In this document: positions 11,203 through 29,704 of the stretch, piece by piece
Position numbering within the stretch: position 1 is the stretch's first letter
How the letters are laid out: every line of letters starts with the position of its first letter
Source: Pseudomonas mandelii
GTDB lineage: Bacteria; Pseudomonadota; Gammaproteobacteria; Pseudomonadales; Pseudomonadaceae
Direction: 5' to 3'
DNA length: 56,756 bases
Assembly: GCF_002251635.1 (NCBI RefSeq)
Contig: NZ_NMOJ01000092.1
Location: 16,355 to 73,110, forward strand
Program-made: the position numbers and the translations under genes
Notes under the pieces: generated by a model
What the model was told of the DNA's origin: nothing
Databases searched by the model: none
The model's input: only the letters and a program-made list of their open reading frames with translations

Positions 11203-13305
11203 CTACGAACAAGCTGCCGGGCCAATTCGCACAAAGGTCACACTGAATTCTTTGCACTGCCGATGCTGCTGGAGCCGATTCGCAAAGCTGAAGGCATCAT
11301 TCAGCTCAAAGCGCTGAAAAACATCCAAACCACGACCAAGCACTATCTTCCAACCCGTGTCGGTTGTGATGTCTCGATCATGCTTGGTGCCGCTAGTGTC
11401 GTAGGCCCAACTGAACTGGATGCCAACACCCGTACAAGCATCAGCGATCTTCTGCAGGCTTTCGGTCTGACGATCACCATTGGAATCATCCTCAACGGTC
11501 ACCACATGAACCACCACCTCATCTTCCGGGCCTTGCAGCTTGCTAATGGTCTCCATCAGCTCCATCAAGTTGCGCAACTGGTGGAACATACGAAGATAGG
11601 GGTCTGTGATGATGATGCGCTTGGCACCTACCAGATAGGGACTGAACAACTTGTCAAAACTCAGTCCTCGCTGATTTTCGTGGAAGACCAAATGCTGCTC
11701 CTTCACCACTGGTTCCATCGGCGCAGGATTGCTTGGGCGTGAAGCTGGCCCTTGCATGGCTGGCGCTGCCTCGATAAGCGCCAAAGGGTCAGTACCGACT
11801 TGGGGTAAGTCTGCAGTAGAAACTTCAGTTGCTCCCCTTCGATGGTATTGATTAGGGTACTCATCCTCTTCCAGAGTGCGCACCAACCGCTCCTGAGCAT
11901 CCCCCCCCTTGTAGGCAAAACGAACTGCCGGATAGGTCGCGTCAATGCGTAGCAACTGATCCTTCACCCGCTTGCGCCCTTCAATTGCAGTGCGCAATAC
12001 GTCTTCCACTTCGGCGTCTGTCGCCTCGCCATGCGGGTACAGGATCTTCATCAAACCAGAAAAGGTTTTGTTGATGCCATCGCGGTCGCGCGTCGAAATA
12101 TCGTCGGATAGCGTGAACTGTCCCTTATAGCGATCTGAGTAGTCATGACTGCGAAGCGAGCGCAGGATCTCGGCCAGGTAGTCCACCACGAAGCCGTAAC
12201 CACTGGAGAACATCTCGCCACGGATGACATCCACTTCCCAACCGGGGATGTAGCTGTGAATGCGGTCGAGAAAGGCTGAATCGTGGAACTTTTCCGGCAG
12301 CGGGTCGAACAGGTCCGTGTGCTTAAGCATGTAGGGCACGGTGTGATCGGTATTACCCACAAACACCATGCTGGCCTCAGCTCCGAGGGTTTCCACACCC
12401 CGCGAGAACGACTTGTTGGCCATGTAGTTCTTCATGATGTCCACCAGCGCCTTATCCACTCGCTTTTGCTTACCGGCGAACTCATCGAAAGCCACTACAT
12501 CCCAGTAACCCACCAGACCGAGCTTACCTGTGCCGTTATGGACGAACAGCTTGGGAACTGTAACTTCGCCACCGGAGATAAGAATGCCGTGGGGTGAAAA
12601 CTCGGAATAAACGTGTGACTTGCCAGTGCCCTTCGGCCCCAGTTCTATCAAGTTGTAGTTGCGCTCGCAGAACGGAATAAGGCGGATAAGCTGAGCAAGC
12701 TTATTGCGCTTGCCAAACATCTGCGGATTGAACCCTACGCTCTGGATCAGCAGGTCAATCCACTCATCAGTGGTGAACTGCTTACGTGCCTCCAGATAGC
12801 CGTCGAAATCAAAGCGGGAAATCTGAATTGGCTTTAGCGAGGCCAGAATCCAAGGTGAGGAAGACTTGTCCTCGGTGTATTCATACTCTACATCTGCAAT
12901 GCACCAAACACCACCTACCAGCAGCTTCTGGTGGGCCTTGACGGTGTTGGAGTCGATCAGCACCTTCTTGATGCCCAGGTTGGCGAACTCAGCCTCGTAC
13001 ACGTCATCCTTGTCGTTTAATGAGACGCTAATACGGTCAATAACCTTGTGCCGCCCCTTCTCCTTGATGGTCGAGCGCACCAACCCTGCTTCGTTGCGGT
13101 GGACATAGTGCTTACGCAGGATCTCCTTGACGGTCTCGATCCCGGTCTGGATAGTCGCTTCGTCATTGGTCGCGCAGTACTGGCCCAGCAAGTACTCCAG
13201 CACATACGACGGCACAATGGCGTTGCCCTTCACCGCTTTGACCAGGTCTTTGCGCACCACTAGTCCGGCAAAGTGCTGGTTGATTTTGTCGTCGAGCTGA
13301 CTCAT
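11203..13305 (-). CDS. brxL: BREX Lon-like protein BrxL
   Basis: BrxL is the Lon-like AAA+ component of type 1 BREX, a defence system that methylates host DNA and blocks phage replication. The N-terminal DNA-binding region (about 1-170) and the AAA+ core with Walker A GPKGTGKS (223-230), a VAFDEFAGK Walker B and sensor GNTDHTVPY fit BrxL closely. The C-terminal part (about 535-695) resembles the MIT C-terminal, phospholipase D-like domain (LSFDKLFSPYLVGAKRI, ITDPYLR, HDRDITTDTGWKI, GRGLDVFQ) in place of an S16 protease domain. It is the last gene of the operon, 12 bp behind pglZ, and has a GGAG site. Confidence 0.93.
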   Translation of the reverse strand: MSQLDDKINQHFAGLVVRKDLVKAVKGNAIVPSYVLEYLLGQYCATNDEATIQTGIETVKEILRKHYVHRNEAGLVRSTIKEKGRHKVIDRISVSLNDKDDVYEAEFANLGIKKVLIDSNTVKAHQKLLVGGVWCIADVEYEYTEDKSSSPWILASLKPIQISRFDFDGYLEARKQFTTDEWIDLLIQSVGFNPQMFGKRNKLAQLIRLIPFCERNYNLIELGPKGTGKSHVYSEFSPHGILISGGEVTVPKLFVHNGTGKLGLVGYWDVVAFDEFAGKQKRVDKALVDIMKNYMANKSFSRGVETLGAEASMVFVGNTDHTVPYMLKHTDLFDPLPEKFHDSAFLDRIHSYIPGWEVDVIRGEMFSSGYGFVVDYLAEILRSLRSHDYSDRYKGQFTLSDDISTRDRDGINKTFSGLMKILYPHGEATDAEVEDVLRTAIEGRKRVKDQLLRIDATYPAVRFAYKGGDAQERLVRTLEEDEYPNQYHRRGATEVSTADLPQVGTDPLALIEAAPAMQGPASRPSNPAPMEPVVKEQHLVFHENQRGLSFDKLFSPYLVGAKRIIITDPYLRMFHQLRNLMELMETISKLQGPEDEVVVHVVTVEDDSNGDRQTESLQKIADACTGVGIQFSWAYDTSGTKHDRDITTDTGWKIVLGRGLDVFQRFELNDAFSFANRLQQHRQCKEFSVTFVRIGPAACS

Positions 13306-13317
13306 TGGAGCTCCTGC

Positions 13318-15825
13318 TTAAAAATCAAATTCGCTGCTGAACGAGCGGCGAATGGCGTAACGCGCGGCTTTGTACCGTGTGAAGTGTGAAGTGCCGTCCA
13401 CGGTCTCTTCAAGGAGCAGTTCCACCTGCTGATTATTCGCCTCATCGGCCTTGCGGCTGAGAATGAAGCGCACCGGCAGCTCCCGTTCACGCGGATTAGG
13501 AGAACTGAAGTCGAACAACAGCTCATGCTGATCGGATACTAGCTCACCGTCCAGCGTGAACAAACCTGCACGCAACCGGCGCGACTGCAGTTTCTCGGTC
13601 ACTGCCTCGGTTTGATAGAGCACCACGGCCAACTGCCCGGTGGTGATGGTCTTGCCACCGCCACCGATGAACTCCACCTCCACCCGACCCACATCGCTCT
13701 GGCGCTTCTTGTTAATGCGGATGACCGGGATCACAACCTCTTGCAGGGTGGCGCCGCCATGCACAAAGCGGCTGCCAGAGCCTTTCAGCCGCAGACGGTT
13801 GATCGATTTGGGAATCTGCACCATAAGCGTTCCCGTCAGGCCTAGCTGCACCGGGTTGAAAGTTTTAAAGCTGGCGCCTTCGCGCAAGCTACGACCCAGT
13901 ACAAAACGCCGGTCGCGGTATAGGACCTCATCGCCCTCCGGCTCACCGCTGAGGAAATCGCTCTCCTGCAGCGGATGATTCTGATAGATGAAGCCATGAT
14001 CGGCAGTGATCAGCAGATTACTGGCATTCGCGTTGGTCAGCTTCTTCACCAGACGGATCAGCTCACTGAGCGTTTCCTCGGCCGCCGAAAACACTCGCTC
14101 TTCGGTATCACGGGTGTCACCGGTCTTGTCGATCAGGTTGTGATAAACGTAAACCACCTCATTGTCGCGCAGCAAGGCACGAGAGTCGGCCTGGTTCATC
14201 GCCAGGAGATCCTTGGCTCGTACCACCTGGGATGCTGGCACCCTGGTCGCCAGAATCTTGCCCCGGTTGACCGAGCCTTGAGCGCTCTGACCATCGACTA
14301 TGGCATCGCCACTGTCGTTGTCGGCCAGTTGCAGGTTGTTGTTGGGTAGCAGCGCCGCCATGCCCAGCTGGGTATAACTCGGCAGCATCGACAGCATCGG
14401 CTCCAGCTCGGCCTCGAAGCGATCCTCCTGACGAATCAGACTTTGCAGTTCCTCGCCTACCTCATAGCGGAACGCATCGGAAATCAGCACGCACACCTTG
14501 GTTTTTCGCTCCACAAAAGGCTGCACGTAGCGGCTGAAGAAATTGCGCTGCAATACTACGGGCGCTGCCTCCCACTGCTGAGCTGCATCCACATGCTGCT
14601 GCCAGCGGTCGTTAAGACGGCTCAGGTAGTTGTTGCCGTACAGATTCTCAACCTGCATAGCCAACTCACCCAACAACGAAGCCTGGCCGGATTCGCGCAG
14701 GTGATAGACGAATTTGCGGTAACGCTGATCCAGCCTGAACCACTGGCTGGCGTACTTTTGCACGCCATCAGTCAGCGACTCCATTTGCAGCTGCGTGATG
14801 TCCAGTACCTGAATGAACTGCGCCGCATGCTCCAGCGCCAGATACACATCCTTGAAGCGCTCAAACCAGTGGCTCTGACGGCGCTGGCGTACCCACTGCT
14901 CCACCTCCTGAGCGGTCACTGTACGGGCCACCACGGCACGTACCAGCTCACTGAGGATCTTGCGGTCGATCAGCTCGAAATAATCCAGCTCCAGCAGGCT
15001 ACGCCAGTCCAGGGTTTGCAGCTTGTCGTCGATCTGCAGCACCGCCGCGCACTGCTCAGACAGTGCCTCGAAACTCTGCTCATGTGAACGACTGTCCTTC
15101 CAGCGTTTGAGGAACACCAGCGCCTCAGCGGACAGTCGCGCCTTATACGCCGGGTCGATCCCAAGCATGAAACAAGCCTTAAACAGCTCGATAACGAAAT
15201 CGTGCAACCCTGGTTGCTCGGAGCTATAGCCATAGGCGCGCTTCACCTGCTCCCACAGATAGACATTCAAGCAGCTGCTTTCGATTAACTTGATCCGCAC
15301 ATCTTTGCTAGCGGCCAGATCACCCAGCAGGTTTTCCAGAATCACATCCAGGCGCGGCTCGTTGCCGGCGCATACAGCAAGCATTTTGCGTTGCAGCAGG
15401 CTCTGCGAATCACCCGGTTCTAGTAACTTACCGAGTGCCTCGCGGCGCTTGGCTGATTCGAAAAACGCCACATGCGCTTCCAACAACGGATAGCAATCCG
15501 GTCCCAACTCCAGCTCAGCCAGCCACAAGGCAACCTGATCGGTACGGAAGCAATTGCCACTGGCGAGCTGCACATCCAACAGCCAATTGTGCAAATGCGG
15601 AGGCTCAGCACCTTCACGGTAGAGCAGAAACTTCTGTTCCGGTTGCTCACGCAGGAGGCGGTATTTCACGCCAAACTCATTGTTAGCCAGCTCGATTTTC
15701 TCAACATCCGGCAACTCCAGCGTCTCGAAATCAGCGCGAAACTCCAGGCGCGTGTCATACCAGAACACTATGCGCTGCTTGTCGAACAGGTTGCTCAGGG
15801 CCTGGCTGATTTTGGGGTTACTCAT
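13318..15825 (-). CDS. pglZ: BREX alkaline-phosphatase-superfamily protein PglZ (type A)
   Basis: PglZ is a core BREX protein with an alkaline-phosphatase-type domain, reported to act as a metal-dependent nuclease or phosphatase and required for methylation and defence. The N-terminal 430 residues are helical. The catalytic domain shows the metal-binding VCVLISDAFRYEVGEEL (Asp450) and LLITADHGFIYQNH (Asp609, His610) motifs. A C-terminal beta-rich domain follows. Length of 835 aa is normal for type A. Its ATG overlaps the stop of the DUF262 gene by 4 bp (15822-15825). Confidence 0.95.
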   Translation of the reverse strand: MSNPKISQALSNLFDKQRIVFWYDTRLEFRADFETLELPDVEKIELANNEFGVKYRLLREQPEQKFLLYREGAEPPHLHNWLLDVQLASGNCFRTDQVALWLAELELGPDCYPLLEAHVAFFESAKRREALGKLLEPGDSQSLLQRKMLAVCAGNEPRLDVILENLLGDLAASKDVRIKLIESSCLNVYLWEQVKRAYGYSSEQPGLHDFVIELFKACFMLGIDPAYKARLSAEALVFLKRWKDSRSHEQSFEALSEQCAAVLQIDDKLQTLDWRSLLELDYFELIDRKILSELVRAVVARTVTAQEVEQWVRQRRQSHWFERFKDVYLALEHAAQFIQVLDITQLQMESLTDGVQKYASQWFRLDQRYRKFVYHLRESGQASLLGELAMQVENLYGNNYLSRLNDRWQQHVDAAQQWEAAPVVLQRNFFSRYVQPFVERKTKVCVLISDAFRYEVGEELQSLIRQEDRFEAELEPMLSMLPSYTQLGMAALLPNNNLQLADNDSGDAIVDGQSAQGSVNRGKILATRVPASQVVRAKDLLAMNQADSRALLRDNEVVYVYHNLIDKTGDTRDTEERVFSAAEETLSELIRLVKKLTNANASNLLITADHGFIYQNHPLQESDFLSGEPEGDEVLYRDRRFVLGRSLREGASFKTFNPVQLGLTGTLMVQIPKSINRLRLKGSGSRFVHGGATLQEVVIPVIRINKKRQSDVGRVEVEFIGGGGKTITTGQLAVVLYQTEAVTEKLQSRRLRAGLFTLDGELVSDQHELLFDFSSPNPRERELPVRFILSRKADEANNQQVELLLEETVDGTSHFTRYKAARYAIRRSFSSEFDF

Positions 15826-17714
15826 GCCACGGCCTCGATCTCTTCATCTTCTTCCAGCACTTCCTCGATCATCGAAAGCGTTCCGCTAACCACGACATTG
15901 CGGCGCAGCCGTTGCATCAACGCTTCCCGACGTTTTTCACAGAACGTCTGGAAGTGAGCAAAATGCAGACTGTCGTCGTCACTCAGTAGCAGGTCGACCG
16001 GCTTGAATCCGGTGTCCTTCTCTGTCATCCAGTCGGCCAGTGACAGATCCTTCTTCGAGCGGTTCTGCGAAGCATTCAGCAGGTGCAGGTTGGCAATCGA
16101 GTTCCAGTTAATGGAGCTCTGATAGAACGCCATCAACCCGGGATCTTTTTGAAGGAAATCCTTTTTGGCGAGAGCAGCCTTTGCAAAGGCGCTGCTCGGA
16201 TGCAGATGATCGATGTCCAGTTGCAGGTTCTCATTGATCTCGGGGAATAGCAGGCTTAGGACCGAACGGCACCTTGAATCCTCATACTGGATATCAAGGA
16301 GCCCCCTCAGATAGGCCTCATCAAACCGAAGATCCTTGTTGGTTGCGGTGAAGGCCTCAATGATTTCATCCAAGGGGAACAGCCCCTTGTCCAAATGCCT
16401 AGCCAACAACCGCTGCATCTTGGTCAGAACACCATCAGCCTGCCCACCAAATATCCCTCGCAAAAGCACCATATGTAACCAGCGGGACAGCGCCAAGCGC
16501 TCTTCGCGTAGGTAGTTGATGTTGTTGATGGTGTGATACAGCGGCTTGTCACGGAAGGACTGCTTGTACATATAGAACGCCAGCGGGATGACCGCGTTCT
16601 TGGCTCTCAGCGACTGGTCGTTTAAGCCGAATTTGCGCAGCAGCTTGAAGGTTGCGACCACACAAGCCCTGATCTCCGACCACTGCTGCTGGATGATGCT
16701 CACCTGATCGGAGTCGAAGTTCTTGACCCGGAACCGCACATCAGCCCCCGTCAGCATCAGACAGGTCTTAAGCACCCAGTCACGGCCAATCGAGAACTGC
16801 ATCTCCGAGCTTTGCCGTACCTCGGTCACCAGTTCGTCTATATCTTTACGAGCATCCCCATCCCAGTTAGCGATGGCGATCGACATCAACAAGTCCGAAA
16901 ACGCCAGCGGCGTACCGCCACTGTTGGTGCGGATGAATACATCCAGTACGTGATCGATATCCTGACTTTCCTCGTTGTAGAAGTGGATCACCTCTTCATG
17001 CCTGACGAGGTAGTACAGGCGGGTCAACGCCTTACGCGCAAAGCTGTTGGAGGCCAGTCCATGCTTCTCAAGGTAGGGCAAGACCACCTCGAACGGAATC
17101 TCATCTACAGAGCGCACGTCAGGCAGGCTCAATACCTTACCCACTTCAAACCAGCGCGAGGAAGGGTCATCACTAAACGCCGCCACCTGTTTTTCGGTCA
17201 GAAATCGGAAATTGTAGTGGGCCATCGAGTCGTTGTCCTCTCCGTCCAGCCCCTTGGCAAGATCCAGATAGAGTCGACGTGGCGGCAGCACTTGGTCGTT
17301 ACGCGCATTGGGCCACCAGACACGGGGCTGCTTGTAGGCATAAGTGCCCTTCAAACCGATGTAGATGGAAGTCAGCCGCTGCTGTCCATCGATGACTGCC
17401 TTGAAGTCTTTGAAGTCGCCCTGAGTCGGAACGTAGTCATTGGACTCCTTGAATCGCTGACAGTAGTCGGTTAGGAAGCTGTAGAAGCGGTATTTGTTCT
17501 TGATCTCCGGGCTCGTCACATCCCACATCATGAATGTATTGATCGGATACTCGCGCATCAGGGAATCAAATAACACGCAGATCTGCTGGGGCGACCAGAC
17601 AAAATTGCGCTGGATCGCCGGGAGCAGAAACGTCCGGTCATCGATGTTGCGTATCGCCTGGCGAATCGTGATCGCCTTCTCGAAGCTTCCTGACATCTCA
17701 GTCTTCCTTGGCAT
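15822..17714 (-). CDS. DUF262/DUF1524 GmrSD-like protein (BrxU-type BREX member)
   Basis: This protein has the two-part build of GmrSD type IV restriction enzymes in one chain: an N-terminal DUF262 NTP-binding domain with LPAIQRNFVWSPQQI and the signature IDGQQRLTSIYI (about 105-118), and a C-terminal DUF1524 HNH-type nuclease with DIDHLHP and a downstream NLHLLNASQNRSKKD. GmrSD enzymes cleave DNA with modified cytosines. In BREX loci such as that of plasmid pEFER, a GmrSD enzyme called BrxU accompanies pglX and pglZ, and the position here matches as I recall it. It overlaps the PglX C-half by 17 bp and pglZ by 4 bp. Activity on modified phage DNA is inferred. Confidence 0.8.
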   Translation of the reverse strand: MPRKTEMSGSFEKAITIRQAIRNIDDRTFLLPAIQRNFVWSPQQICVLFDSLMREYPINTFMMWDVTSPEIKNKYRFYSFLTDYCQRFKESNDYVPTQGDFKDFKAVIDGQQRLTSIYIGLKGTYAYKQPRVWWPNARNDQVLPPRRLYLDLAKGLDGEDNDSMAHYNFRFLTEKQVAAFSDDPSSRWFEVGKVLSLPDVRSVDEIPFEVVLPYLEKHGLASNSFARKALTRLYYLVRHEEVIHFYNEESQDIDHVLDVFIRTNSGGTPLAFSDLLMSIAIANWDGDARKDIDELVTEVRQSSEMQFSIGRDWVLKTCLMLTGADVRFRVKNFDSDQVSIIQQQWSEIRACVVATFKLLRKFGLNDQSLRAKNAVIPLAFYMYKQSFRDKPLYHTINNINYLREERLALSRWLHMVLLRGIFGGQADGVLTKMQRLLARHLDKGLFPLDEIIEAFTATNKDLRFDEAYLRGLLDIQYEDSRCRSVLSLLFPEINENLQLDIDHLHPSSAFAKAALAKKDFLQKDPGLMAFYQSSINWNSIANLHLLNASQNRSKKDLSLADWMTEKDTGFKPVDLLLSDDDSLHFAHFQTFCEKRREALMQRLRRNVVVSGTLSMIEEVLEEDEEIEAVA

Positions 17715-19440
17715 CCAGTCCGATGATCTTCTTGAGCGCCGAGCCTAGCTTGAGGTAGTTCACCTTAACGCCATCATCGAGATCCAGCGCCACCTGCTCA
17801 GTAGCCAACGGATAGAGGGTGTCACGCTCGTAGTCGTCCAGCTCCAGCAGTTGCTTTTTGAGCGTTTCGATTTCCTTGAGGGCACGGGTCTTTTCGCCTT
17901 GGCTGGCGGAGGTGCTGATGCCGACTTGCTGGAGGTAATCCAGCCGTGCAGCTAGCTTCTTACGGAAGTCGCGCAAGTATCGCAGCACCACGCTCACCGT
18001 ATCCGGACGGTAGCGGTGCAGGTAGATCAGCGCACTGAAAGTGCCCTTGGGGCTGGAGAACAGCCAGTAGATGGGCCTCTTTTTGTAGCGCTTCACATGG
18101 TCGGCGTAAAAATCCTTGAGGAAGTACTTGCGCACGTCCTTGCCCAGCGACTGTTCAATAAAAGCCAGATTGGCCTCGTAGTGGATCTCGCCAAAGGTAA
18201 CGCGCAAAAAGGTGCGGAAGCGCTCAGTCACGTCGTCAGCAAACCACTCGCCATCTAGCAGCGGGATCACGTTGTCTTCGTCCGGCATAAAACGAGGTTC
18301 AGGGATCTGGTGCAGATACTCAGCCAGAGTGTCGCCTTGGTTGGCCAGAACAAGCCCAGGCTTGTCCAGGCTATAGCGGCCAAACATGCAGGCTACGGCG
18401 TAGCTGAGGAACTCAGTCATGGTGTCACTCTGCAACTGCGTCTCCAACTCGGCCTCGGTCTTGTCACCGCCATAGCGGTAGTGCGGGTTGCAGGTGAGGG
18501 TAATTTCCTTGAGCGGCACCTCGGGTTTCAGTTCGTCTTGCAGGCCGTAAGCATTGATGAAGATGCGGTTGTTTTCTTCTTCGAGGCGCTGCATTTCCAG
18601 CGTCATGTCGCTCCAATACGCGCGGAGCTGCAAATAGGTGGATTGCAGGCTGGGCTGACGAAACTCGGATTGCATTAACGGCAGAGAGGTGAAATCCCAA
18701 GAAACTTCAGAGGCGTCCCAGTCATATTGACTCAACGAGATTGCACTCTGCGTAACCTTGACAACGTCAGGAGAGACAGGAATAAATGGAATCCTGAGAA
18801 CATTCCCAACCTCAATATTCATCGTCGCACTAATAAGCCGAAGGAAGTAATCTGCAAGATTTGATGAGAGAAGGGCTTGAATTACGAACAAGTTAGCTTC
18901 TGCTGCTTTTTTAAAAGCACTGGATCCTGGCGTTACAAACATAAAGCCAGGCCCGCTAAACCTAACGCCAAGCTTCCCAGAGCTAAGAGCACTCCAGGTC
19001 ACAGATTCTTGAAATCCAAAATCCCCGTTATAGTTGTGCGACCTAACCCTGCCGGTCTCCATATCAACAAGGGATTTTACGGCCTCACCATCTTTAAACC
19101 AGTTAACTAAATTCTCATTATTTCCGTACCACTTTCGAAAATCCCCACCTTTATTGCAGGGAAACCACTTTCTTCCAGACTCAACGGACTCTTCATTGGT
19201 GGTCATTCCGAATCCAATTTCGCTTAACGAAACCTCCCACCAACCACGAACGAATGCACCATTATCACCCGTTGCCAAGGCAATTCGCGCGTGAACCAGA
19301 TCGCCTAAAGATGTCCCATTTTCAAACGCATCTATAACTGACTTTGGAGCCCAATATGCAATCGGACTCCCCGGGATTTTCTTGAAATCCGCCGCCGAGG
19401 CCCGAAAGAGGTACTTCTCCATATTTTTTTCCTGATTCAT
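17698..19440 (-). CDS. pglX: PglX C-terminal half (target-recognition part), separate ORF
   Basis: The 580-aa product begins with a few new residues (MNQEKNMEKYLF) and then continues as the C-terminal half of the BREX adenine methyltransferase, starting at the family's well conserved RASAADFKKIPGSPIAYW. It contains no SAM or NPPY motif; these are in the N-half at 21215-23014. It therefore supplies the DNA target recognition and C-terminal domains. Its ATG overlaps the stop of the 58-aa ORF as TAATG (19442-19438). A GGGGAAGAG ribosome site precedes it. The frame is intact throughout, suggesting a functional two-chain PglX rather than a decayed gene. Confidence 0.88.
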   Translation of the reverse strand: MNQEKNMEKYLFRASAADFKKIPGSPIAYWAPKSVIDAFENGTSLGDLVHARIALATGDNGAFVRGWWEVSLSEIGFGMTTNEESVESGRKWFPCNKGGDFRKWYGNNENLVNWFKDGEAVKSLVDMETGRVRSHNYNGDFGFQESVTWSALSSGKLGVRFSGPGFMFVTPGSSAFKKAAEANLFVIQALLSSNLADYFLRLISATMNIEVGNVLRIPFIPVSPDVVKVTQSAISLSQYDWDASEVSWDFTSLPLMQSEFRQPSLQSTYLQLRAYWSDMTLEMQRLEEENNRIFINAYGLQDELKPEVPLKEITLTCNPHYRYGGDKTEAELETQLQSDTMTEFLSYAVACMFGRYSLDKPGLVLANQGDTLAEYLHQIPEPRFMPDEDNVIPLLDGEWFADDVTERFRTFLRVTFGEIHYEANLAFIEQSLGKDVRKYFLKDFYADHVKRYKKRPIYWLFSSPKGTFSALIYLHRYRPDTVSVVLRYLRDFRKKLAARLDYLQQVGISTSASQGEKTRALKEIETLKKQLLELDDYERDTLYPLATEQVALDLDDGVKVNYLKLGSALKKIIGLDAKED

Positions 19441-19616
19441 TACTCTTCCCCTTTGGGCAAGGCTCTTCTTGCATGGGAGGACTCAAAGCCATCCGGCAAG
19501 GGCTTTAATGGGCTGACCGGCGAGCGGTGGCAGGACTGGAACTGACGCAGTGCCTGCATGTCAATTTCGCCGATGATGAGATATTCATTAATACTCCCGC
19601 TTAACATTCTCACCAT
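19440..19616 (-). CDS. 58-aa ORF between the ATPase-nuclease pair and PglX C-half
   Basis: The start ATG lies one base behind the stop of the nuclease-like gene (TGA-G-ATG) and is preceded by GGAGG; the stop overlaps the next ATG as TAATG. These tight junctions argue that it is translated. The product starts MVRMLSGSINEYLIIGEIDM and its C-terminal half is Pro/Ser/Arg-rich. I recognise no domain. It could be a linker peptide, a regulator of the pair, or a remnant created by the insertion into pglX. A longer version in the same frame (from 19718) would overlap the nuclease-like gene and is unlikely. Confidence 0.5.
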   Translation of the reverse strand: MVRMLSGSINEYLIIGEIDMQALRQFQSCHRSPVSPLKPLPDGFESSHARRALPKGEE

Positions 19617-19617
19617 C

Positions 19618-20157
19618 TCAAACAACCTCCTGCGGTGGTACAAGCAATCGAGTTGCCGGCCACTTCGGAAAGTTCTCATTCCATTTTTCCAGATTGACAA
19701 CTTGGCAGCTCGTGGCAAGAGTCTGAATCCATCGACGTGGAGCCCTACCTACCGGAAGCTCTTGTTTCAGAGATTTTTGCATTCTGCTATTCAGGGCATT
19801 ATCAAAAGTAATTAGACACACATAGTGAATGGGCTTGTCGACCTTCTGCTCTGCATGCCGATAAAGGTATGAGTCCCTAAATTTATACTTCAGGTAATTT
19901 TTCAACCACCTGAAACTGTCCTGCCTGCTATGCTTCTCATCATCCGATGCGGCATGGATAACGTCGTAAGCTGATGGATCATCATAATCTTTCATCTCAA
20001 TGTAAACGTATGCCGACTCGAACTCCGCCACGATATCAACCCCTTTCATAGGTGCACCATGAAAGGTCGGTTTAGTATTGTCTTTTTCATCAAAAACGAA
20101 CGCATCAATTGCATCAGAGAATCGAAATTCAAATCCATCAGCCTGAATAACCTTCAT
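19618..20157 (-). CDS. PD-(D/E)XK nuclease-like protein nested in pglX
   Basis: This 179-aa protein carries a plausible PD-(D/E)XK core: Asp41 in MKGVDIVAEF followed by E-x-K in YVYIEMKDY (Glu54, Lys56), with a beta strand HYVCLITFDNA further on. That arrangement is typical of small restriction-type nucleases. I cannot name the family. Its ATG overlaps the stop of the upstream ATPase as ATGA (20154-20157), so the two are probably made together as an ATPase-nuclease pair. It has no visible DNA-binding domain. The nuclease call is inference from three residues and spacing. Confidence 0.6.
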   Translation of the reverse strand: MKVIQADGFEFRFSDAIDAFVFDEKDNTKPTFHGAPMKGVDIVAEFESAYVYIEMKDYDDPSAYDVIHAASDDEKHSRQDSFRWLKNYLKYKFRDSYLYRHAEQKVDKPIHYVCLITFDNALNSRMQKSLKQELPVGRAPRRWIQTLATSCQVVNLEKWNENFPKWPATRLLVPPQEVV

Positions 20158-21218
20158 TTTCCAAGACCGCCCATATCGTTTTCGATCTCCTGATTGATGA
20201 GAAAACCAAACGCCTCATCGATTGGATTGGGTGATATGTCCAGAAAGTGCTCTGTCGAGGCAATCTTGATATCGGTCGTAACTGGATCGCGATATAGGCT
20301 GTGAAACCGCACATGGTCACCCTTGCCTTTGTCCATCAGTAGATCAAACCACTTGAGCAACACATAATCGTGGGTGGCCAAAATCACCTGCTGGCCGTTG
20401 CGGGACAGCTCCAGAAGGATCTTCACGAGAAGCTTCATCAGCTTAGGATTGAGATTCGTCTCAGGTTCATCCCAAAAAAGCGGACCGCTGACACCGGGTT
20501 GGATAGCACCAGTTTCTAACAGGCGGGAGAGCATGCCCGCCTTGCGAAAGCCTTCAGCCATAGCGTTAGCTGAGTATTCTGCGTTGTCGGTTTTGAAGGT
20601 AACTTTGCCTCCGCCGTAGAAAACAAAGCGGCCACCACAAATTGCCTCGATTTCAGCCATCGCCCATTTGGATTTTTCGTGCAGGGTTTCAGGCCGTACT
20701 TCAGGAAGATCCAGCAGCAGACAAATATCCTGATAGCTCTGATCGAAGGAGAGGCCGTACTTTTCATACAGGCTATTGAAACCCTTCATGAAGGAGAGAA
20801 CTTCCTTCGTCGGCATAAAAACCGCTTCTACCTGAGAGTGCTGGTAGTTGGTGCGCTCCTGAATGGCAAGTGAGCGGGAGTTGTTGAAGAAGGTTGCAGC
20901 TAGCCGCTGCTCTTGGGCGAACTGCGCGCTCAGGCAGGCCTGTTCGGTAGCACCCTGGTGGTGCATCTTGCCCAGTTTCTCGTCTAGAGGCATGAACAGC
21001 CGAAGCAGTTTGGTTGTGAGCATGGCAGCCAGCTCTTCGTCGCTGGCGTCAGGTTTGGCTTTGTGTAGCGATGCGCCGGAACACATGGCGTAGGAAGCTT
21101 TGAGCAACTGGGTTTTTCCAGTACCGTTTTCACCGATGATCACGTTGATCTTGGGCGAAAAATCAATGGCAAGGTCACTGAAGGCGGTAAAGTTTTTAAG
21201 CGCGAGTTGGGTGATCAT
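20154..21218 (-). CDS. ABC/SMC-type AAA family ATPase nested in pglX
   Basis: This 354-aa ATPase has Walker A IGENGTGKTQLLK (29-36), Walker B with catalytic Glu in GPLFWDEPETNLNPK (Asp250, Glu251) and the H-loop LATHDYVLL (His283), the pattern of RecF/OLD-type (AAA_15/AAA_21) ATPases. No TOPRIM or long coiled coil is present. Such ATPases pair with small nucleases in defence systems such as Septu and PARIS, but the partner here is neither HNH nor TOPRIM. Its ATG overlaps the stop of the PglX N-half as ATGA (21215-21218). It interrupts pglX in the middle of the BREX operon. Confidence 0.88.
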   Translation of the reverse strand: MITQLALKNFTAFSDLAIDFSPKINVIIGENGTGKTQLLKASYAMCSGASLHKAKPDASDEELAAMLTTKLLRLFMPLDEKLGKMHHQGATEQACLSAQFAQEQRLAATFFNNSRSLAIQERTNYQHSQVEAVFMPTKEVLSFMKGFNSLYEKYGLSFDQSYQDICLLLDLPEVRPETLHEKSKWAMAEIEAICGGRFVFYGGGKVTFKTDNAEYSANAMAEGFRKAGMLSRLLETGAIQPGVSGPLFWDEPETNLNPKLMKLLVKILLELSRNGQQVILATHDYVLLKWFDLLMDKGKGDHVRFHSLYRDPVTTDIKIASTEHFLDISPNPIDEAFGFLINQEIENDMGGLGK

Positions 21219-23014
21219 TGAATCGCCTCCTTGAGCATAGCGGACTTCTCCGCTTCGGAGCTGCCATCGACCAGCCGCAGATACGATCCCTTATATTTCG
21301 GCTTATGCTGGTTCTCCAGCACAAAGGCCGTGGTGGAGACTATCTCACCACCGATGCTGTCAAACGCCCGCGCTCCCAGATGGGCCATGGAGAGAATGGT
21401 GTTCTTCCCCAGAATGCGCACTCGCAGCGACTCGAATGAGGACAGGAACATCCAGCTTTGCATGGTGATCATGGCCACCGCACCTGTAGGCACAGCTAGA
21501 TCAAGATTGCGCTCGATAAACATGGCAAACAGATCGGATTTGCTGCTGGGGTAGCTTTCCTTTGCCCATGCACCCAACCGCGCATTCATGCCCTTGCTTC
21601 CCATATAGGGAGGATTGGCTACAACCACTTGGTATTTTTGGCTCAAATAATCTGCCTGCAACAGCACCTTCAACACTTTGACGTGGGTTCCGGCCAGGAA
21701 CAAGTTACCAGCCATGTCTTTCGCTTCCAGCACCGGCAACACGTTCTGCACGCTGGTGAGTTTGGGGCGAATCAGCGAACCAAAGTTGTCGGCTTCTTCA
21801 AATTGCTTGAGAGTTTCGCGCAGATCGAGGGTAAACAGATCGCGACCCACAGCCGTGATGTATTCATCCAGCTCATCGTGGCTGAACGTCACCTTTTCCA
21901 GGACGCGGATGTTTGGCTTGATGGCCTTGTTGAAAAAGCGGCGCTGTTTAGCGCGGGCTTTCATGGTCAGGGCAAAAGCGGCCAGCTCGCCTGCTCGCTC
22001 GTCCAGTTCGATGCCGTAGAGGTTGTGGGTGAGGATTTTCTCGGGGATTTCGTTCGGATCAGTACCCATCTCTTCGTAGATGGCGTACAGCAAATCAAAA
22101 GCGTAGGTGAGCATGTGGCCGGAACCACAGGCCGGGTCGCAGACCTTGATGTCTTCCGGGCGAGTAATCCTGAGGAAGTCGATTTCTTCAGCCGCTGGCT
22201 TGATGTAGTACTCCATCTGCCCGGCCAGAGGTGAGCCGGGATGGTTGAGAATCCACAGGCGGCCCAGAGAGTTTTCCACTAGGTAGCGCACAATCCAGTG
22301 CGGGGTGAATAGCTGGGTGGCGGCGGGGATATTCTCAGGGATGATCTTCTGGTTCTTTTTCAACCCTTCAAAGACAGAGTCCTTTTTCTCGGAGATGTAA
22401 AACTGGTATAGCCAACCAATCACCTCAACATCCGTGCAAGCGTCGGGCGTCATGGCTTCACGGGTGTAGGCTAGAATAGAATTGCCCGAGAGCAGGTCAT
22501 CAGGCATCAGGAGCTCGGTGTAATCTGCGATACGCTCGAAAAGGTAAGGCATAGCGCTGTGGAAGCTGTTGCACTCTGCCACCACCAGCAGGCGGTAGGC
22601 TTCCTGCTGCGGGTCGTGGCTAGGAGCGGTGCCACTGAGCAGGGCTTGGATCTGCCGGCTGATTTTTTCGGGCACGCGATCTTCATCGATATGGCCAGCC
22701 TTGGCTTCAGCCAGTATTTCCGGCTGGAACTGGCCTTCGTCAGCGGGCGATACTACACGGATGCGCGTGTAGGCATTCACGTCCATAAAACGCAAAGCAC
22801 AGAAGCGGTTGAACCATGTGTAGGCCACCTTGTCGATGAGTTGCTCGCGGCTGGATGTAGCAATTTGCTTTTCCAACTGGGCCACGGCCTGCGGATTCTC
22901 GCGGCGAGCGGCGCTGCTGGCATCAAGCACCAGGATGAGCTTGGCGCCGACTTGCTCCAGCAATAGACGACGGGCGTGCTGGGCGAACTTCTTGAGTTTG
23001 GTGGTTTCCATCAT
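21215..23014 (-). CDS. pglX: PglX N-terminal half (adenine methyltransferase part), separate ORF
   Basis: PglX methylates adenine in the BREX recognition sequence to mark self DNA. This 599-aa chain contains the SAM-binding motif I VCDPACGSGHMLTYAF (291-306) and catalytic motif IV VVVANPPYMG (463-472), preceded by the helical N-terminal domain. It stops after SAMLKEAIQ, precisely before the segment (RASAADFKKIPGSPIAYW) that opens the C-half at 19440. A normal PglX has about 1200 aa in one chain; here 599 plus 580 aa add up to that. The stop overlaps the ATPase start. It begins 68 bp after brxC with an AGAGAAG site. Confidence 0.9.
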   Translation of the reverse strand: MMETTKLKKFAQHARRLLLEQVGAKLILVLDASSAARRENPQAVAQLEKQIATSSREQLIDKVAYTWFNRFCALRFMDVNAYTRIRVVSPADEGQFQPEILAEAKAGHIDEDRVPEKISRQIQALLSGTAPSHDPQQEAYRLLVVAECNSFHSAMPYLFERIADYTELLMPDDLLSGNSILAYTREAMTPDACTDVEVIGWLYQFYISEKKDSVFEGLKKNQKIIPENIPAATQLFTPHWIVRYLVENSLGRLWILNHPGSPLAGQMEYYIKPAAEEIDFLRITRPEDIKVCDPACGSGHMLTYAFDLLYAIYEEMGTDPNEIPEKILTHNLYGIELDERAGELAAFALTMKARAKQRRFFNKAIKPNIRVLEKVTFSHDELDEYITAVGRDLFTLDLRETLKQFEEADNFGSLIRPKLTSVQNVLPVLEAKDMAGNLFLAGTHVKVLKVLLQADYLSQKYQVVVANPPYMGSKGMNARLGAWAKESYPSSKSDLFAMFIERNLDLAVPTGAVAMITMQSWMFLSSFESLRVRILGKNTILSMAHLGARAFDSIGGEIVSTTAFVLENQHKPKYKGSYLRLVDGSSEAEKSAMLKEAIQ

Positions 23015-23082: not shown

Positions 23083-26000
23083 TCAAATCTGTACGCGGTT
23101 GCCTGCTTGGATTTCCTTCAGCCAGGCTTCGCGCTGCTGCCGTAGGTAATCATCGAGCTCAGACTCACTGGCCAGCCAAGGCTTGCTGTAACCCACCTTG
23201 ATAGAACGTGCGGGCACCAAGCGCGGTTCGGCCTCTTGGGGTGGTTCTGCGCTTGGTTGCGGCGGATAATCGTTGTCCTGATTTCCCGCTGGCGGCGGAG
23301 AAAAGGGTGGAATTGGATCTGGTACCGGTTGCGGACGAGCCAGTCGCTCCAATTTGAGCAGCAACTGTGCGTATTGATTGTCCTCGAAGGCACGCAACTG
23401 ATCACGGATCATGGCGATACGCTTCTGCCCTTGCATTGACTGCCGAGCTTCAACAAACGGCACAGCGAGCTGAGCCTGCTGCTCCGGCTTAAGACTGCCG
23501 TACTCGTTGCTCCCCTGCAAACGCAACTCCAACTCGGCAAGCCGGCCGACTGCGGCAGCCTTTTCGCCGGTTAGCTGGTTAGCAATGGCTTGCTGCAAGG
23601 ACTCCAGTTGCGGTTTAGCCTGCTGCAGGCGGTTGCCTTGCCAGGGTTTATTCTCGGTGAGTAATGCCTTGATGACTTCAACCTCTCCCGTCACGACATA
23701 GGCGAAATTGTCTTCCTGCTCCTGCACCAGTTGGCGAGCCTGATCGTAAATAGCTTTTTGCGGACTACCCATGAAGCGACGTAGCGGCTCAATGATCTGC
23801 TCTTTGGTGTCGAGCATGGCATCGGAGGCGCGAGACAAGTCGGTAAGGAACCAACTGGCGTTTTTGCCGGCAATCTCCTTGAGGGTAGCCATCACGCCAT
23901 CCAGCACATTGAGGAAACCATATAAGGCTTTTTGCCCATGCAGGTCTGCTAATTCAATCTCCAGTTCTTTGATGGCGTCGATGGTTTCACGCGCCAGAGC
24001 GCGGGCTTCGTTACAGCTGGCGGGACGGTCAAAAAAGTCGGCAAAGAACTCTTTGAGATGGCGGACCTGAGAGGCGCTGAACTCGATTTGCGGCTCCAAC
24101 ACTAAGGTGGTGTGAGCGTTGGTGTTGCGCAAGCTGCGCTCCAGGTTGTCGCCTTCCAGCGGATTGCTGTCTTGCCGCACCTCCACCTTGCCACGCGCAC
24201 AGAGCAGCGCAAGGTTGCAAAGAATGGCGGCATAATACCAGCCGTAGTTCTTGCGCTCGAATCGCTCCAATAGGGTTTTGACCGTAGTGCGCACACCGCT
24301 TCGAGCATTGTTCTGGATATAGGCTAGTAGCTCCTGCTCGGGCTCGGTCAGGCTAGTAGCGTCGTTGCCGAGTAGACCGTCCTGCGCCTGGCGAAGGTAT
24401 TTGCCAATGTCGTTCTCGTTGAACGGCACATCGCGCAGCATGCGCAGGTTCGGATAAGTAGTTTCGATCAACTGGTAGAAGCCTTTCAGAATACGGGTCT
24501 GACCGTCGCTGCTGGTGGCCTCCACATCCGCGGCGTTAATGATCAAGTGCGCTTTGCCAAGCAACTCCTTGGCTCGATCCTGTAATTCGGCTAGACGTTC
24601 GGTGTTCTGGAAGCCCTTGGCGTCGATGATGCGTTTAACCGCTTCCTGTTGAGTGCTGCTGTTCTGTCGTATGTATTTCTCAGTGCGTTTGTGCAGGGTG
24701 AGATCCTGCATGAACCGGGCATCAGCCGGCAGCACCACACGCAGCTCATCACGTCCCATGCTCTGCATGCGCTGCACGGTGAGGTTATCGAAGTTGTCAC
24801 TAAGCGGAGTGACAATGTGGATGGCCAACTCAAACTCGCGACTGAGCGAACGGTCGTCCATTTTGCGCGTATAGGCATAGTCCTGGGCGTTTTCATAGCG
24901 GACTTTGCGCTGTTTGATCACGCCATCAAACAGCAGGGTTTCCAGCTCCTTGATGACATCGGCAGTTTCGATCTCCGTGTTTTTGATCTCTTCTTCGATG
25001 TCCTTCTCTTCGTCGGTCAGGTACTCGTAGAACTCGCCATTGCGTTGGATGTAGGTTTGCTGCTCCAGCAAGTTGAGTGCCGCTTCCAGCTTCTTGCGTT
25101 GGGCTGGAATGTCTTCGCCAAAACGCTCCAGCATCAGCACATTGAGATTGCGTAGAGTGGCCTTGAACTCTTTGACGTACTTGACCAAGAACAATGCTTT
25201 GAGCACGCGCACCGCGTATGGGTCGCCAAGGTGCCGCTCGGCATTGTTGATAGCGCTTTGAATAGCGCTTTTCAGCGCGCCGCGAATGCCTTCGAACATT
25301 CGATCAAAGGTGGCCAGCTGGCCCACTGGCTCGTTGTCGATAGCCATAGCCACTTCTCGGAACACGCCGAGCATGGAGCGTTCGCCAACAGAGTTGGCCT
25401 TGCCCTCAAACCCGTTATGCATGGATATGCCACGAATGGCCGACTGGAACAGTGGGAACTGGTACGGCACGAAGGGGTAGCAGTAAGTGAAGTGCTCCAG
25501 ATCGCGGAAGTTTTGGTAGTGCTGGCCACCGTCGGCAAAGTCGAATAGGGTTTTGAAGTTGTTGAGCTGCTGGTCGTAGACAATTTTCAACAGCGCGGCG
25601 CCGATATCATTCTTGGTCAACAAACGCTTCTGGATCACCTCGGCTACGTCGGCACTAGTGAGCTTGAGACGGTTGGCAAAACGCGCTTGGACCCGAGAAA
25701 AGTCGTTGCTTTGCTGCTTGCTCATGTCCCCCATCACCGAGTCCATATCCTCCTGTGCGGTGACGATAATCCAAGCCCTACCCTGGCACTTGGTGGCCAG
25801 GCTTTCGGCCACGGTCTGCAGGTTGGTCATTAGCTTGGTGTTGTCGGCAATGTACTGGCCGACCTCATCGACAAAGAAATTCAGGCGGAAGTTGGACGGC
25901 TGTTTGTCCAGCCATTCCTTTACCTGATTGCCGAAGTCTTCAATGGAAACGCTGTGTTGAGTGCGGTATTTATCGAGGATGCCCTTGGCCAGCGCCAGGT

Positions 26001-26640
26001 CTTCGTCGGTGATTTGGGCGTAGGCCTTGGCGATGTTACCTGTCTCCAGCAGCGCCTGTTCGCGACCACGCTCCCAGGGTTTATTGGCTATGCTCTGGTA
26101 GGCTTCCTTGAACGGTTGGAACAGTTCGCGACTGTCCAGGTCGCGCTCAAACTGGGCAATGTAACCCTGCTTTCCGTAATAACCACACATCTCGTTGAAG
26201 ACTTTGACGAATACCGAGAGCAAGGCGTCGACCTGGGTCTTGCTGATGATGTCGGCCTTCTGGTCGATGTTGAACAGGATGCTTTTCGAGGGGATAACGA
26301 CAGCTTTTTTCAGCTGAGCGCGCAACAGCTCATCGTCGTCCTTGATCTTGGGTAGGAAGATGTCCAGTGCAGTACTGCCGTCGACCTGGCGATTTTCCAG
26401 CAGCAGGGCGAGCATTTTCAGCAGGTGCGACTTACCCGAGCCGAAGAAGCCGGAGACCCAGACGCCATTGGCATGGTGGTAGTCGGTATAGGCATCGAGG
26501 AAGTGCTCCAGACGCTTGGCGACTTCGTCAGTCAGGACGTATTCACTGAGCTCGTTGAACAAGCTAGCTTCGTCGTCGGCCTTAATGACGCCCTCAATCG
26601 GACGACTGACTGGGCTCTTGAAAATTCCGTTGAGTTTCAT
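23083..26640 (-). CDS. brxC: BREX P-loop ATPase BrxC
   Basis: BrxC is the large ATPase of type 1 BREX and is needed for both methylation and phage exclusion. The start LNGIFKSPVSRPIEGVIKA is highly typical. Walker A GFFGSGKS is at 64-71, and a NFFVDEVGQYI stretch fits Walker B. Length of 1185 aa is normal. The C-terminal 70 residues are Pro/Gln-rich before a short conserved tail. It follows brxB with an 11-bp gap and has an AAGGAAG site. Confidence 0.95.
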   Translation of the reverse strand: MKLNGIFKSPVSRPIEGVIKADDEASLFNELSEYVLTDEVAKRLEHFLDAYTDYHHANGVWVSGFFGSGKSHLLKMLALLLENRQVDGSTALDIFLPKIKDDDELLRAQLKKAVVIPSKSILFNIDQKADIISKTQVDALLSVFVKVFNEMCGYYGKQGYIAQFERDLDSRELFQPFKEAYQSIANKPWERGREQALLETGNIAKAYAQITDEDLALAKGILDKYRTQHSVSIEDFGNQVKEWLDKQPSNFRLNFFVDEVGQYIADNTKLMTNLQTVAESLATKCQGRAWIIVTAQEDMDSVMGDMSKQQSNDFSRVQARFANRLKLTSADVAEVIQKRLLTKNDIGAALLKIVYDQQLNNFKTLFDFADGGQHYQNFRDLEHFTYCYPFVPYQFPLFQSAIRGISMHNGFEGKANSVGERSMLGVFREVAMAIDNEPVGQLATFDRMFEGIRGALKSAIQSAINNAERHLGDPYAVRVLKALFLVKYVKEFKATLRNLNVLMLERFGEDIPAQRKKLEAALNLLEQQTYIQRNGEFYEYLTDEEKDIEEEIKNTEIETADVIKELETLLFDGVIKQRKVRYENAQDYAYTRKMDDRSLSREFELAIHIVTPLSDNFDNLTVQRMQSMGRDELRVVLPADARFMQDLTLHKRTEKYIRQNSSTQQEAVKRIIDAKGFQNTERLAELQDRAKELLGKAHLIINAADVEATSSDGQTRILKGFYQLIETTYPNLRMLRDVPFNENDIGKYLRQAQDGLLGNDATSLTEPEQELLAYIQNNARSGVRTTVKTLLERFERKNYGWYYAAILCNLALLCARGKVEVRQDSNPLEGDNLERSLRNTNAHTTLVLEPQIEFSASQVRHLKEFFADFFDRPASCNEARALARETIDAIKELEIELADLHGQKALYGFLNVLDGVMATLKEIAGKNASWFLTDLSRASDAMLDTKEQIIEPLRRFMGSPQKAIYDQARQLVQEQEDNFAYVVTGEVEVIKALLTENKPWQGNRLQQAKPQLESLQQAIANQLTGEKAAAVGRLAELELRLQGSNEYGSLKPEQQAQLAVPFVEARQSMQGQKRIAMIRDQLRAFEDNQYAQLLLKLERLARPQPVPDPIPPFSPPPAGNQDNDYPPQPSAEPPQEAEPRLVPARSIKVGYSKPWLASESELDDYLRQQREAWLKEIQAGNRVQI

Positions 26641-27916: not shown

Positions 27917-28112
27917 CACTTCGCGCCTGCTGCGATTCGTCACTGGCTCCGCCAGCTTTGACCCAGGTATCCACCTCAACCTTCTGGAACTTCCACAACC
28001 GACCGACCTTGTGGGCTGGCATGCTGCGTTTGGCAATCCATGCATAAACGGTGTCCTTGCTGACGCCGAGGTGTTCGGCAATTTCATCAACACTGTGCCA
28101 ACGATCAGTCAT
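27909..28112 (-). CDS. Excisionase-like helix-turn-helix protein leading the BREX operon
   Basis: This 67-aa protein is almost entirely a MerR/excisionase-type winged helix: WHSVDEIAEHLGVSKDTVYA, then GRLWKFQKVEVDTWVKAGG. It overlaps brxA and is the first gene of the BREX transcription unit, so it probably regulates that operon, or possibly serves as a DNA-bending excision factor. The inverted repeat just upstream (28124-28162) is a natural candidate site. Its function has not been shown. Confidence 0.82.
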   Translation of the reverse strand: MTDRWHSVDEIAEHLGVSKDTVYAWIAKRSMPAHKVGRLWKFQKVEVDTWVKAGGASDESQQARSDG

Positions 28113-29372: not shown

Positions 29373-29383
29373 ATCCTTCTCCT

Positions 29384-29638: not shown

Positions 29639-29704
29639 GTCCACTTCCTTCCGTGAGTTCGATAAATCTCGAAGACAGATACAAGATATGTAGTGTTTAA
29701 CGAC

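What the first reader, a model, noticed from the sequence alone, without database searches (positions are those of the whole stretch)
17698..23014. BREX methyltransferase PglX split in two by a nested ATPase-nuclease module
The PglX N-half (SAM motif and NPPY, 599 aa) ends just before the segment that opens the C-half (RASAADFKKIPGSPIAYW, 580 aa). Between them lie an RecF/OLD-type ATPase (354 aa), a PD-(D/E)XK-like protein (179 aa) and a 58-aa ORF. All five junctions are ATGA, TGA-G-ATG or TAATG, and no frame is broken, so the arrangement looks selected rather than decayed. Known: PglX is normally a single chain of about 1200 aa, and ATPase-nuclease pairs form stand-alone defence systems. Inference: a second defence module has entered the interdomain boundary, yielding a two-chain PglX and possibly linking methylation, target recognition and the new effector.
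Basis: partly seen in the sequence, partly recalled or inferred. Interest (0 to 1): 0.88.

Follow-up and report, generated by a model that had tools for sequence, protein, structure and literature searches.

The report
Split BREX methylase carrying nested defences
In a phage-defence gene cluster of a Pseudomonas-like bacterium, the gene for the DNA-marking enzyme is cleanly cut in two at its hinge, and the gap acts as a slot in which different extra defence genes come and go; related clusters in other bacteria show the same cut with other contents.

Summary
A type I BREX operon carries pglX as two open genes (599 and 580 aa) with an ABC/OLD-type ATPase, a PD-(D/E)XK-like protein and a 58-codon ORF between them. 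It is not a one-off: 15 other loci (three phyla, two of these known only from MAGs) are split at the same place, the published hinge between the methyltransferase and recognition jaws. Slot contents differ: HEC-02 (ATPase+nuclease) alone, with a UG5 RT-nitrilase, or with SIR2-HerA; the RT without HEC-02; Schlafen with PARIS-like genes; or only a remnant. In-slot HEC-02 copies are not one clade (p 3e-51). Same-genus loci with 85-95% identical flanks have intact, emptied and filled pglX; the block that does not match always includes the cargo and the TRD, so I infer that cargo rides on specificity swaps. That the two chains act as one enzyme, and that HEC-02 is a backup effector, is inferred, not shown.

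The parts
21215..23014 (-). pglX N-half: N-terminal domain and adenine methyltransferase (599 aa)
   Evidence: NF033452 positions 1-644, 760.7 bits; PADLOC half-length PglX model PDLC02525, 934 bits; two stretches align to solved PglX 8c45 residues 71-392 and 437-636
20154..21218 (-). HEC-02A: ABC/OLD-type ATPase (354 aa); K35, E251, H283 invariant
   Evidence: PADLOC PDLC04213 E 2.5e-116; Pfam AAA_15; invariant residues in 43 sequences; AF2 model pLDDT 90.7, best fold match Septu PtuAB chain 8eea_B E 6.8e-14
19618..20157 (-). HEC-02B: PD-(D/E)XK-like nuclease (179 aa); D41, E54, K56
   Evidence: PADLOC PDLC04229 E 1.7e-67; conservation in 68 sequences; AF2 pLDDT 94.5; modest fold matches, Z up to 7.1
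19440..19616 (-). 58-codon ORF: remnant of the C-terminal tail of a UG5 RT-nitrilase
   Evidence: 51-62% identity over 50-57 residues to the ends of six RT-nitrilases, E 4e-17 to 3e-21 in a set of 11 cargo proteins
17698..19440 (-). pglX C-half: target recognition domain, spacer, C-terminal domain (580 aa)
   Evidence: NF033452 positions 647-1209, 666.2 bits; PDLC02516, 708 bits; aligns to 8c45 residues 645-1214
18723..21663 (-). segment without a blastn match of 80 bp or more in same-genus loci L127/L128 that have an intact pglX: late methyltransferase, cargo and TRD
15822..17714 (-). BrxU-like GmrSD-family enzyme (PADLOC HEC-05), 630 aa
   Evidence: solved structure 7p9k, E 6.6e-99; GmrSD_N; HEC-05
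13318..15825 (-). pglZ
   Evidence: PF08665, PADLOC
11203..13305 (-). brxL
   Evidence: PF13337, PF20442, PADLOC
23083..26640 (-). brxC
   Evidence: PADLOC BrxC, 1784 bits
26652..27317 (-). brxB
   Evidence: PADLOC BrxB E 1.1e-59
27305..28093 (-). brxA (the listed GTG start is probably too early: the model match begins at residue 60)
   Evidence: PADLOC BrxA E 1.9e-80

Best explanation
The locus is a type I BREX system whose PglX is made as two chains. PglX-N is the methyltransferase 'upper jaw'; PglX-C is the target-recognition and C-terminal 'lower jaw'. The break lies in the flexible hinge that joins the jaws in solved PglX/BrxX. The gap is a cargo slot inside one tightly overlapping operon. 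Here it holds the HEC-02 ATPase-nuclease pair and the tail of an earlier RT-nitrilase cargo. Shown: the split, its recurrence, variety and turnover of cargo, open and selected PglX frames, and BREX loci with similar flanks that differ in a block holding the cargo and the TRD. Inferred: the two chains pair without a covalent link and methylate the BREX site, much like HsdM with HsdS. Inferred: HEC-02 is a backup effector, its ATPase sensing infection or an anti-restriction protein and then releasing the nuclease, as PARIS or Septu do. Inferred: cargo spreads by riding on recombination selected for new DNA specificity.
For: The halves together cover the PglX model. The split maps between residues 636 and 645 of the 1225-aa PglX 8c45, and PglX-C begins to align at residue 646 of E. 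coli BrxX, inside its hinge loops 638-675 (PMC11842806 passage). 16 split loci including the window share this place: N alignments end at window residue 578-599, C alignments begin at residue 1-8. Cargo: HEC-02 as only complete cargo 3, HEC-02+RT 4, HEC-02+SIR2-HerA 3, RT without HEC-02 inside 4, Schlafen+AriA/AriB-like 1, no complete gene 1. Scars: RT tail in the window and L054, SIR2 head in L125 and L012, HerA tail in L122. In-slot HEC-02A needs two changes on the tree and one clade is rejected, p 3.15e-51. pN/pS 0.10-0.23 for PglX-N, 0.37-0.38 for PglX-C, 0.14 and 0.11 for HEC-02A and B against L009. In one search the N-half overlaps the first cargo gene by 4 bp in 6 of 6 loci where it was computed; spacings into pglX-C are -4, -4, -4, +1, +1, -8 in the six computed. 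Block difference.
Against: No complex of the halves was predicted and no methylome exists. The Salmonella PglX C-terminal domain could not be expressed alone (PMC11341690 section 12), so the lower jaw may not fold by itself. The nuclease fold matches are modest (Foldseek best E 0.02; Z at most 7.1, a level the tool warns can be a common arrangement). The remnant ORF shows no clear selection against L054 (pN/pS 0.73, 95% 0.44-1.43); the lower values against L064 and L063 (0.41, 0.34) include the branch of the full-length RT. The intact L127 sits among split rows on both PglX trees, so re-fusion or recombination blurs the history. Block exchange rests on pairwise identity, not on a formal recombination test, and its left edge varies. 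SIR2-head scars rest on 19-27 residues. HEC-02B is rare in near relatives: 2 of 57 genomes, the window included.
Confidence: 0.65

Rival explanations
1. PglX is broken: the insert inactivated the methyltransferase, and the locus lives on as a host for HEC-02 and the BrxU-like gene.
For: No other PglX was found in the genome. One genus genome (G073) carries a transposase-like ORF inside the methyltransferase part, so pglX decay happens. The C-terminal domain of Salmonella PglX was not expressible alone.
Against: Both halves are open in the 16 split loci (in L033 the last codons run into unknown bases), selection is purifying, tight overlaps are kept with different cargo, and the break is at one place.
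Confidence: 0.12
2. Programmed excision: the cargo is removed in some cells to restore a one-chain PglX.
For: The halves join with almost no loss of model positions.
Against: No repeat has a copy at each edge; no recombinase gene lies in the window's slot; each half has its own start and stop and the C-half an extra N-terminal stretch.
Confidence: 0.03
3. The split is real and works, but the cargo is incidental: HEC-02 is an independent defence system that uses the operon's expression and has no working link with BREX.
For: In 9 of 80 loci no BREX gene was matched in the stretch held; two plasmid copies have no BREX gene annotated nearby. RT-nitrilase also stands apart from BREX. Cargo kinds are interchangeable. 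In Salmonella LT2 an ATPase/DUF4435 pair lies between pglX and pglZ; a passage I saw only in part begins 'Neither gene contributes' (PMC9009780).
Against: HEC-02 lies beside or inside pglX in 60 of 80 loci. A 2026 survey reads OLD-ABC/nuclease pairs as backup effectors of BREX (PMC12839542 section 35).
Confidence: 0.35
4. Assembly or sequencing artefact.
For: The window comes from a 251-contig draft.
Against: 15 other split loci in separate assemblies, two single-contig.
Confidence: 0.01

Closest known systems
Type I BREX with single-chain PglX/BrxX (8c45, 8q56, 9ewz)
   Same: brxA, brxB, brxC, pglX, pglZ, brxL; the same PglX parts in the same order
   Different: PglX is two chains cut at the jaw hinge with other genes between. 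[quoted passage not shown]
PADLOC HEC-02 candidate defence module
   Same: Both proteins match, E 2.5e-116 and 1.7e-67
   Different: Mostly found between brxC and an intact pglX (47 of 80 loci); here inside pglX
OLD-ABC ATPase + PD-(D/E)XK backup effectors of BREX (PMC12839542)
   Same: The same kind of pair within BREX loci
   Different: The word 'split' does not occur in its text; insertion into pglX is not mentioned in the passages and section 35 that I read
PARIS (AriA/AriB) and Septu (PtuA/PtuB)
   Same: ABC-type ATPase with a small nuclease; a Septu PtuAB chain is the best fold match of HEC-02A
   Different: The nuclease matches neither DUF4435/Toprim nor HNH models
HsdM/HsdS type I methyltransferases, and PrrC embedded in RM loci
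   Same: Separate methylation and recognition chains; an extra effector nested in the operon (PrrC within RM loci: PMC12629846 passage)
   Different: A likeness of organisation only; not a member
BrxU (7p9k; name recalled)
   Same: The gene at 15822-17714 lies between pglX and pglZ and matches 7p9k, E 6.6e-99
   Different: A separate accessory outside the pglX slot

Membership tests
Type I BREX | brxA, brxB, brxC, pglZ, brxL in one locus | tested here: met
Type I BREX | BREX-1 adenine methyltransferase PglX with methyltransferase and recognition parts | tested here: met
   NF033452 covered by two chains, 1-644 and 647-1209, each above the 500-bit cut-off
Type I BREX | site-specific adenine methylation and phage exclusion | not testable with these tools
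   needs methylome and plaque assays
HEC-02 | HEC-02A ATPase and HEC-02B partner adjacent | tested here: met
HEC-02 | antiphage activity | not testable with these tools
   a search for 'HEC-02' found only an unrelated paper
PD-(D/E)XK nucleases | D...ExK active-site residues | tested here: met
   E54 and K56 invariant, D41 in at least 90% of 68 sequences; the ExK lies on model strand 50-56
PD-(D/E)XK nucleases | fold | tested here: inconclusive
   many top matches are enzymes I know as PD-(D/E)XK, but Z is at most 7.1 and Foldseek E 0.02
PARIS | AriB-type DUF4435/Toprim partner | tested here: not met
   no Pfam family at E up to 1 in the 179-aa protein; only HEC-02 models in PADLOC at E up to 0.1
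Septu | PtuB HNH partner | tested here: not met
BrxU / GmrSD | homology to BrxU over its length | tested here: met
   residues 14-606 against 7p9k 5-577, E 6.6e-99

The most novel reading that the evidence does not exclude
The PglX hinge is a general nesting site for defence genes in BREX. Splitting PglX turns it into a two-subunit, HsdM/HsdS-like enzyme, and the genes between the subunits form one exchangeable cassette with the TRD. Recombination that gives a strain a new DNA specificity then also gives it a new second-line effector. The effector may guard the enzyme, firing when the two chains are kept from clamping DNA, for example by a DNA mimic.
Probability: 0.3. Interest if true: 0.82.

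Novelty: new variant of a known kind. Interest (0 to 1): 0.64.

Why it matters
Nature appears to have cut PglX at its hinge repeatedly. If the two chains work together, the methylation and recognition jaws can be studied and exchanged as separate subunits. The slot would also explain how extra defences gather inside BREX operons and why they could change together with DNA specificity. It gives annotators a rule: two half-length PglX genes need not be a pseudogene, and what lies between them is worth testing as defence genes.

Tried and rejected
Pseudogene: disfavoured for the hinge splits by open frames and selection. G073 looked split by frame length (699 aa) but has a transposase-like ORF inside the methyltransferase part; dropped from the split count. 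L057 was flagged 'broken', but its only stop is at codon index 1161 of the 1163-codon joined match; counted as intact.

58-aa ORF as a gene of its own: rejected, it matches RT-nitrilase tails; selection on it was not shown.

Flanking repeats for excision: none with a copy at each edge. Internal promoter: 1 match against 3.8 expected in shuffles; terminators 6 against 6.2.

E. coli genomes: no near match to the 7-kb segment. Plasmids: 8 of 72,556 records hold HEC-02A and 260 hold a PglX C-part; I did not sort those 260 into split and intact. Of the plasmid HEC-02 copies viewed, two sit between brxC and a one-gene pglX and one lies after pglX in a BREX-2 locus. PHROGs: no family for the nuclease or PglX-C. 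The solved-structure profile search with the nuclease alignment gave no credible hit. Rfam on L125, L126, L129: only C4 antisense RNA elements in L125. RT-nitrilase family: 4 of 340 class genomes; one is the slot copy in G1063, two have no PglX match in the stretch held, one lies on a 4.2-kb contig.

Alignments used part of what was at hand: 68 of the window plus 75 nuclease ORFs, and 43 ATPases. The PglX-N tree lacks L039, whose match was in two pieces.

Literature: nine searches listed no paper that I could recognise as reporting a split PglX slot. Seven papers were opened in part, most listed ones not. 'Split' occurs in PMC11341690, PMC11842806, PMC12205998 and PMC12707154 only in other senses and not in PMC12839542 or PMC9009780. 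The library is open-access only. A preprint on embedded defences (Payne et al. 2024) was seen only as a reference and could cover part of this. PADLOC already holds half-length PglX models (PDLC02525, PDLC02516), so split halves have probably been clustered before.

Papers, what I saw: PMC11341690 passages and section 12; PMC11842806, PMC12629846, PMC12988326, PMC12707154, PMC12205998, PMC9009780 passages; PMC12839542 outline, passages and section 35; all others listings only. (That is eight papers opened in all.)
Full report
What is there. The window holds a type I BREX operon on the minus strand: brxA, brxB, brxC, pglX, a BrxU-like gene, pglZ and brxL. pglX is two genes. PglX-N (23014-21215, 599 aa) covers positions 1-644 and PglX-C (19440-17698, 580 aa) positions 647-1209 of the 1210-position BREX-1 PglX model; each alone passes the 500-bit cut-off. 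Between them are a 354-aa ABC/OLD-type ATPase, a 179-aa protein and a 58-codon ORF. Junctions are ATGA, ATGA, TGA-G-ATG and TAATG, and an AAGGAGG lies in the last codons of PglX-N just before the ATPase start. In the whole genome the PglX model finds only these two halves.

Where the cut falls. PglX-N aligns to the 1225-aa PglX 8c45 (the length of Salmonella PglX in PMC11341690) up to residue 636, and PglX-C from residue 645. That paper puts the hinge at 654-659 (passage). The E. coli paper describes an upper jaw (N-terminal and methyltransferase domains) and a lower jaw (recognition and C-terminal domains) joined by flexible hinge loops 638-675 (PMC11842806 passage); on that protein PglX-C begins to align at 646. 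So the cut separates the two jaws.

What the insert is. The ATPase and the 179-aa protein match PADLOC's HEC-02A and HEC-02B (E 2.5e-116 and 1.7e-67). K35, E251 and H283 of the ATPase are invariant in 43 sequences. Its AF2 model (pLDDT 90.7) matches Septu PtuA and SMC/Rad50 heads. In 68 sequences of the small protein E54 and K56 are invariant and D41 nearly so. Its model (pLDDT 94.5) matches many enzymes I know as PD-(D/E)XK, but weakly (best Foldseek E 0.02, Z 7.1). The 58-codon ORF is the tail of a UG5 RT-nitrilase: 51-62% identical over 50-57 residues to the ends of six such proteins, E 4e-17 to 3e-21 within a set of 11 cargo proteins.

How common the arrangement is. By context (L057 re-read as intact): 47 have HEC-02 between brxC and an intact pglX, 3 have it there with pglX split further on by an RT-nitrilase, 8 have it inside a split pglX, 1 follows a partial pglX-N match, and 1 lies between tandem pglX copies. 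In 9 no BREX gene was matched, and in 11 the contig or the matches did not let me judge pglX. This sample is chosen by HEC-02 and cannot give the frequency of splits. In samples not chosen that way I judged by frame length, and looked closer at the short frames. Of 398 same-genus genomes 13 have the PglX C-part: 6 split at the hinge (window included), 6 with one long frame, 1 interrupted elsewhere by a transposase-like ORF. Three of the six are the same genomes as loci of the first set, recognised by identical ATPases. Of 369 class genomes 6 matched: the window, 3 with one long frame, 2 fragmentary or partial. Of 398 phylum genomes 13 matched: the window, 7 with one long frame, 2 split, 3 partial. 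Of 60 genomes of the family of G1063, 5 matched: G1063 split and 4 with frames of 1172-1342 aa. HEC-02B itself is rare near the window: 2 of 57 relatives including the window, the other weak.

Cargo and turnover. The 16 distinct split loci carry: HEC-02 as the only complete cargo in 3 (window, L054, L122); HEC-02 with RT-nitrilase in 4 (L062, L063, L064, L068); HEC-02 with SIR2 and HerA in 3 (L053, L059, L060); RT-nitrilase without HEC-02 inside in 4 (L012, L033, L039, L130); a Schlafen gene with AriA/AriB-like genes in 1 (L129); no complete gene in 1 (L125). L012 is a Kiritimatiellota MAG and L033 a Melainabacteria MAG; the others are Pseudomonadota. Scars show turnover: RT tail in the window and L054, SIR2 head in L125 and L012 (27 and 19 residues, E 7e-6 and 6e-5 in the small set), and in L122 a 113-bp DNA match to L060 that runs from the HerA end into the start of pglX-C (80%, E 5e-24). 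RT-nitrilase also exists away from BREX. Cargo changes but tight gene overlaps stay. I infer that tails persist because they carry the translation start region of pglX-C.

History. On the HEC-02A tree (81 rows, quick search) the in-slot position needs two changes: a supported clade of nine from Pseudomonas and beta-proteobacteria, and the window, which sits among copies of other phyla placed upstream of pglX; one clade is rejected, p 3.15e-51. The simplest reading is two arrivals. On the PglX trees the split label needs 5 changes (N part, 76 rows, 15 split; 4 forced by well-supported branches) and 8 (C part, 74 rows, 16 split; 6 forced), gains and losses not separated, with long-branch warnings for the N tree. 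Window against L127/L128, same genus with intact pglX: DNA 92% identical from 30700 to 21663, no match of 80 bp or more until 18723, 83% to 17706, then 95% from 15826 to 10505; the BrxU-like gene is absent there. Against L127 the identity drops after about codon 420 of PglX-N and recovers after codon 240 of PglX-C, just past the TRD. L054 (93-94% flanks) and L125 (85-92%) share the right-hand edge (18728, 18703); the left edge varies, and in L125 PglX-N stays alike to its end. So similar BREX backbones in one genus exist with intact, emptied and filled pglX, and the block that differs always includes the cargo and the TRD.

Selection. pN/pS is 0.10-0.23 for PglX-N (four pairs), 0.37-0.38 for PglX-C (three pairs, TRD included), 0.14-0.16 and 0.11-0.19 for HEC-02A and B against L009 and L013, and 0.42 and 0.61 against the more distant L054, where synonymous sites are saturated. 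The remnant ORF gives 0.73 (0.44-1.43) against L054, so no selection is shown; against the full-length RT tails of L064 and L063 it gives 0.41 and 0.34, which includes the RT's own branch.

How it probably works. PglX-N and PglX-C are made from one tightly overlapping operon and pair as methylation and recognition subunits, as HsdM and HsdS do. This is inferred. The Salmonella N-terminal part could be purified alone, whereas the C-terminal part could not be expressed (PMC11341690 section 12); that fits a need for co-production but is also a caution. HEC-02 probably acts as a second line, its ATPase gating the nuclease. A 2026 survey proposes this backup role for OLD-ABC/nuclease pairs in BREX (PMC12839542 section 35). 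The trigger is unknown.

Novelty. Embedded defences, HEC-02 and OLD-ABC/nuclease pairs in BREX are in print or in databases. Nine searches and the passages opened gave no description of PglX split at the hinge as a cargo slot; [quoted passage not shown] The library is open-access only, most listed papers were not opened, and a preprint on embedding was not held. I rate it a new variant of a known kind.

Noticed in passing
L130 (G1063), L033, L039, L012: A UG5 RT-nitrilase sits as cargo between the PglX halves in four loci without HEC-02 inside; the RT also stands apart from BREX on a Sinorhizobium plasmid and in other genomes.
   Followed up: partly
L129:7337-10680: A split pglX with a Schlafen gene and AriA/AriB-like (PARIS-like) genes in the slot.
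   Followed up: partly
L126: A transposase-like ORF lies antisense inside the methyltransferase part of pglX in a same-genus genome, unlike the hinge splits (named by eye, not searched).
   Followed up: partly
L071: Two pglX copies in tandem with HEC-02 between them (Pacificibacter maritimus).
   Followed up: no
window 11203-13305: BrxL has a PF16565 phospholipase D-like C-terminal domain.
   Followed up: no
window 28320-34260: Beyond brxA lie a 542-aa ORF weakly like LeoA-type dynamin GTPases (below its cut-off), a 619-aa ORF that looks GTPase-like and a 355-aa ORF that looks like an ADP-ribosylglycohydrolase (the last two by eye, not tested).
   Followed up: no
L022: SIR2 and HerA genes occur in a BREX locus whose pglX is intact, so this cargo too has places outside the slot.
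   Followed up: no
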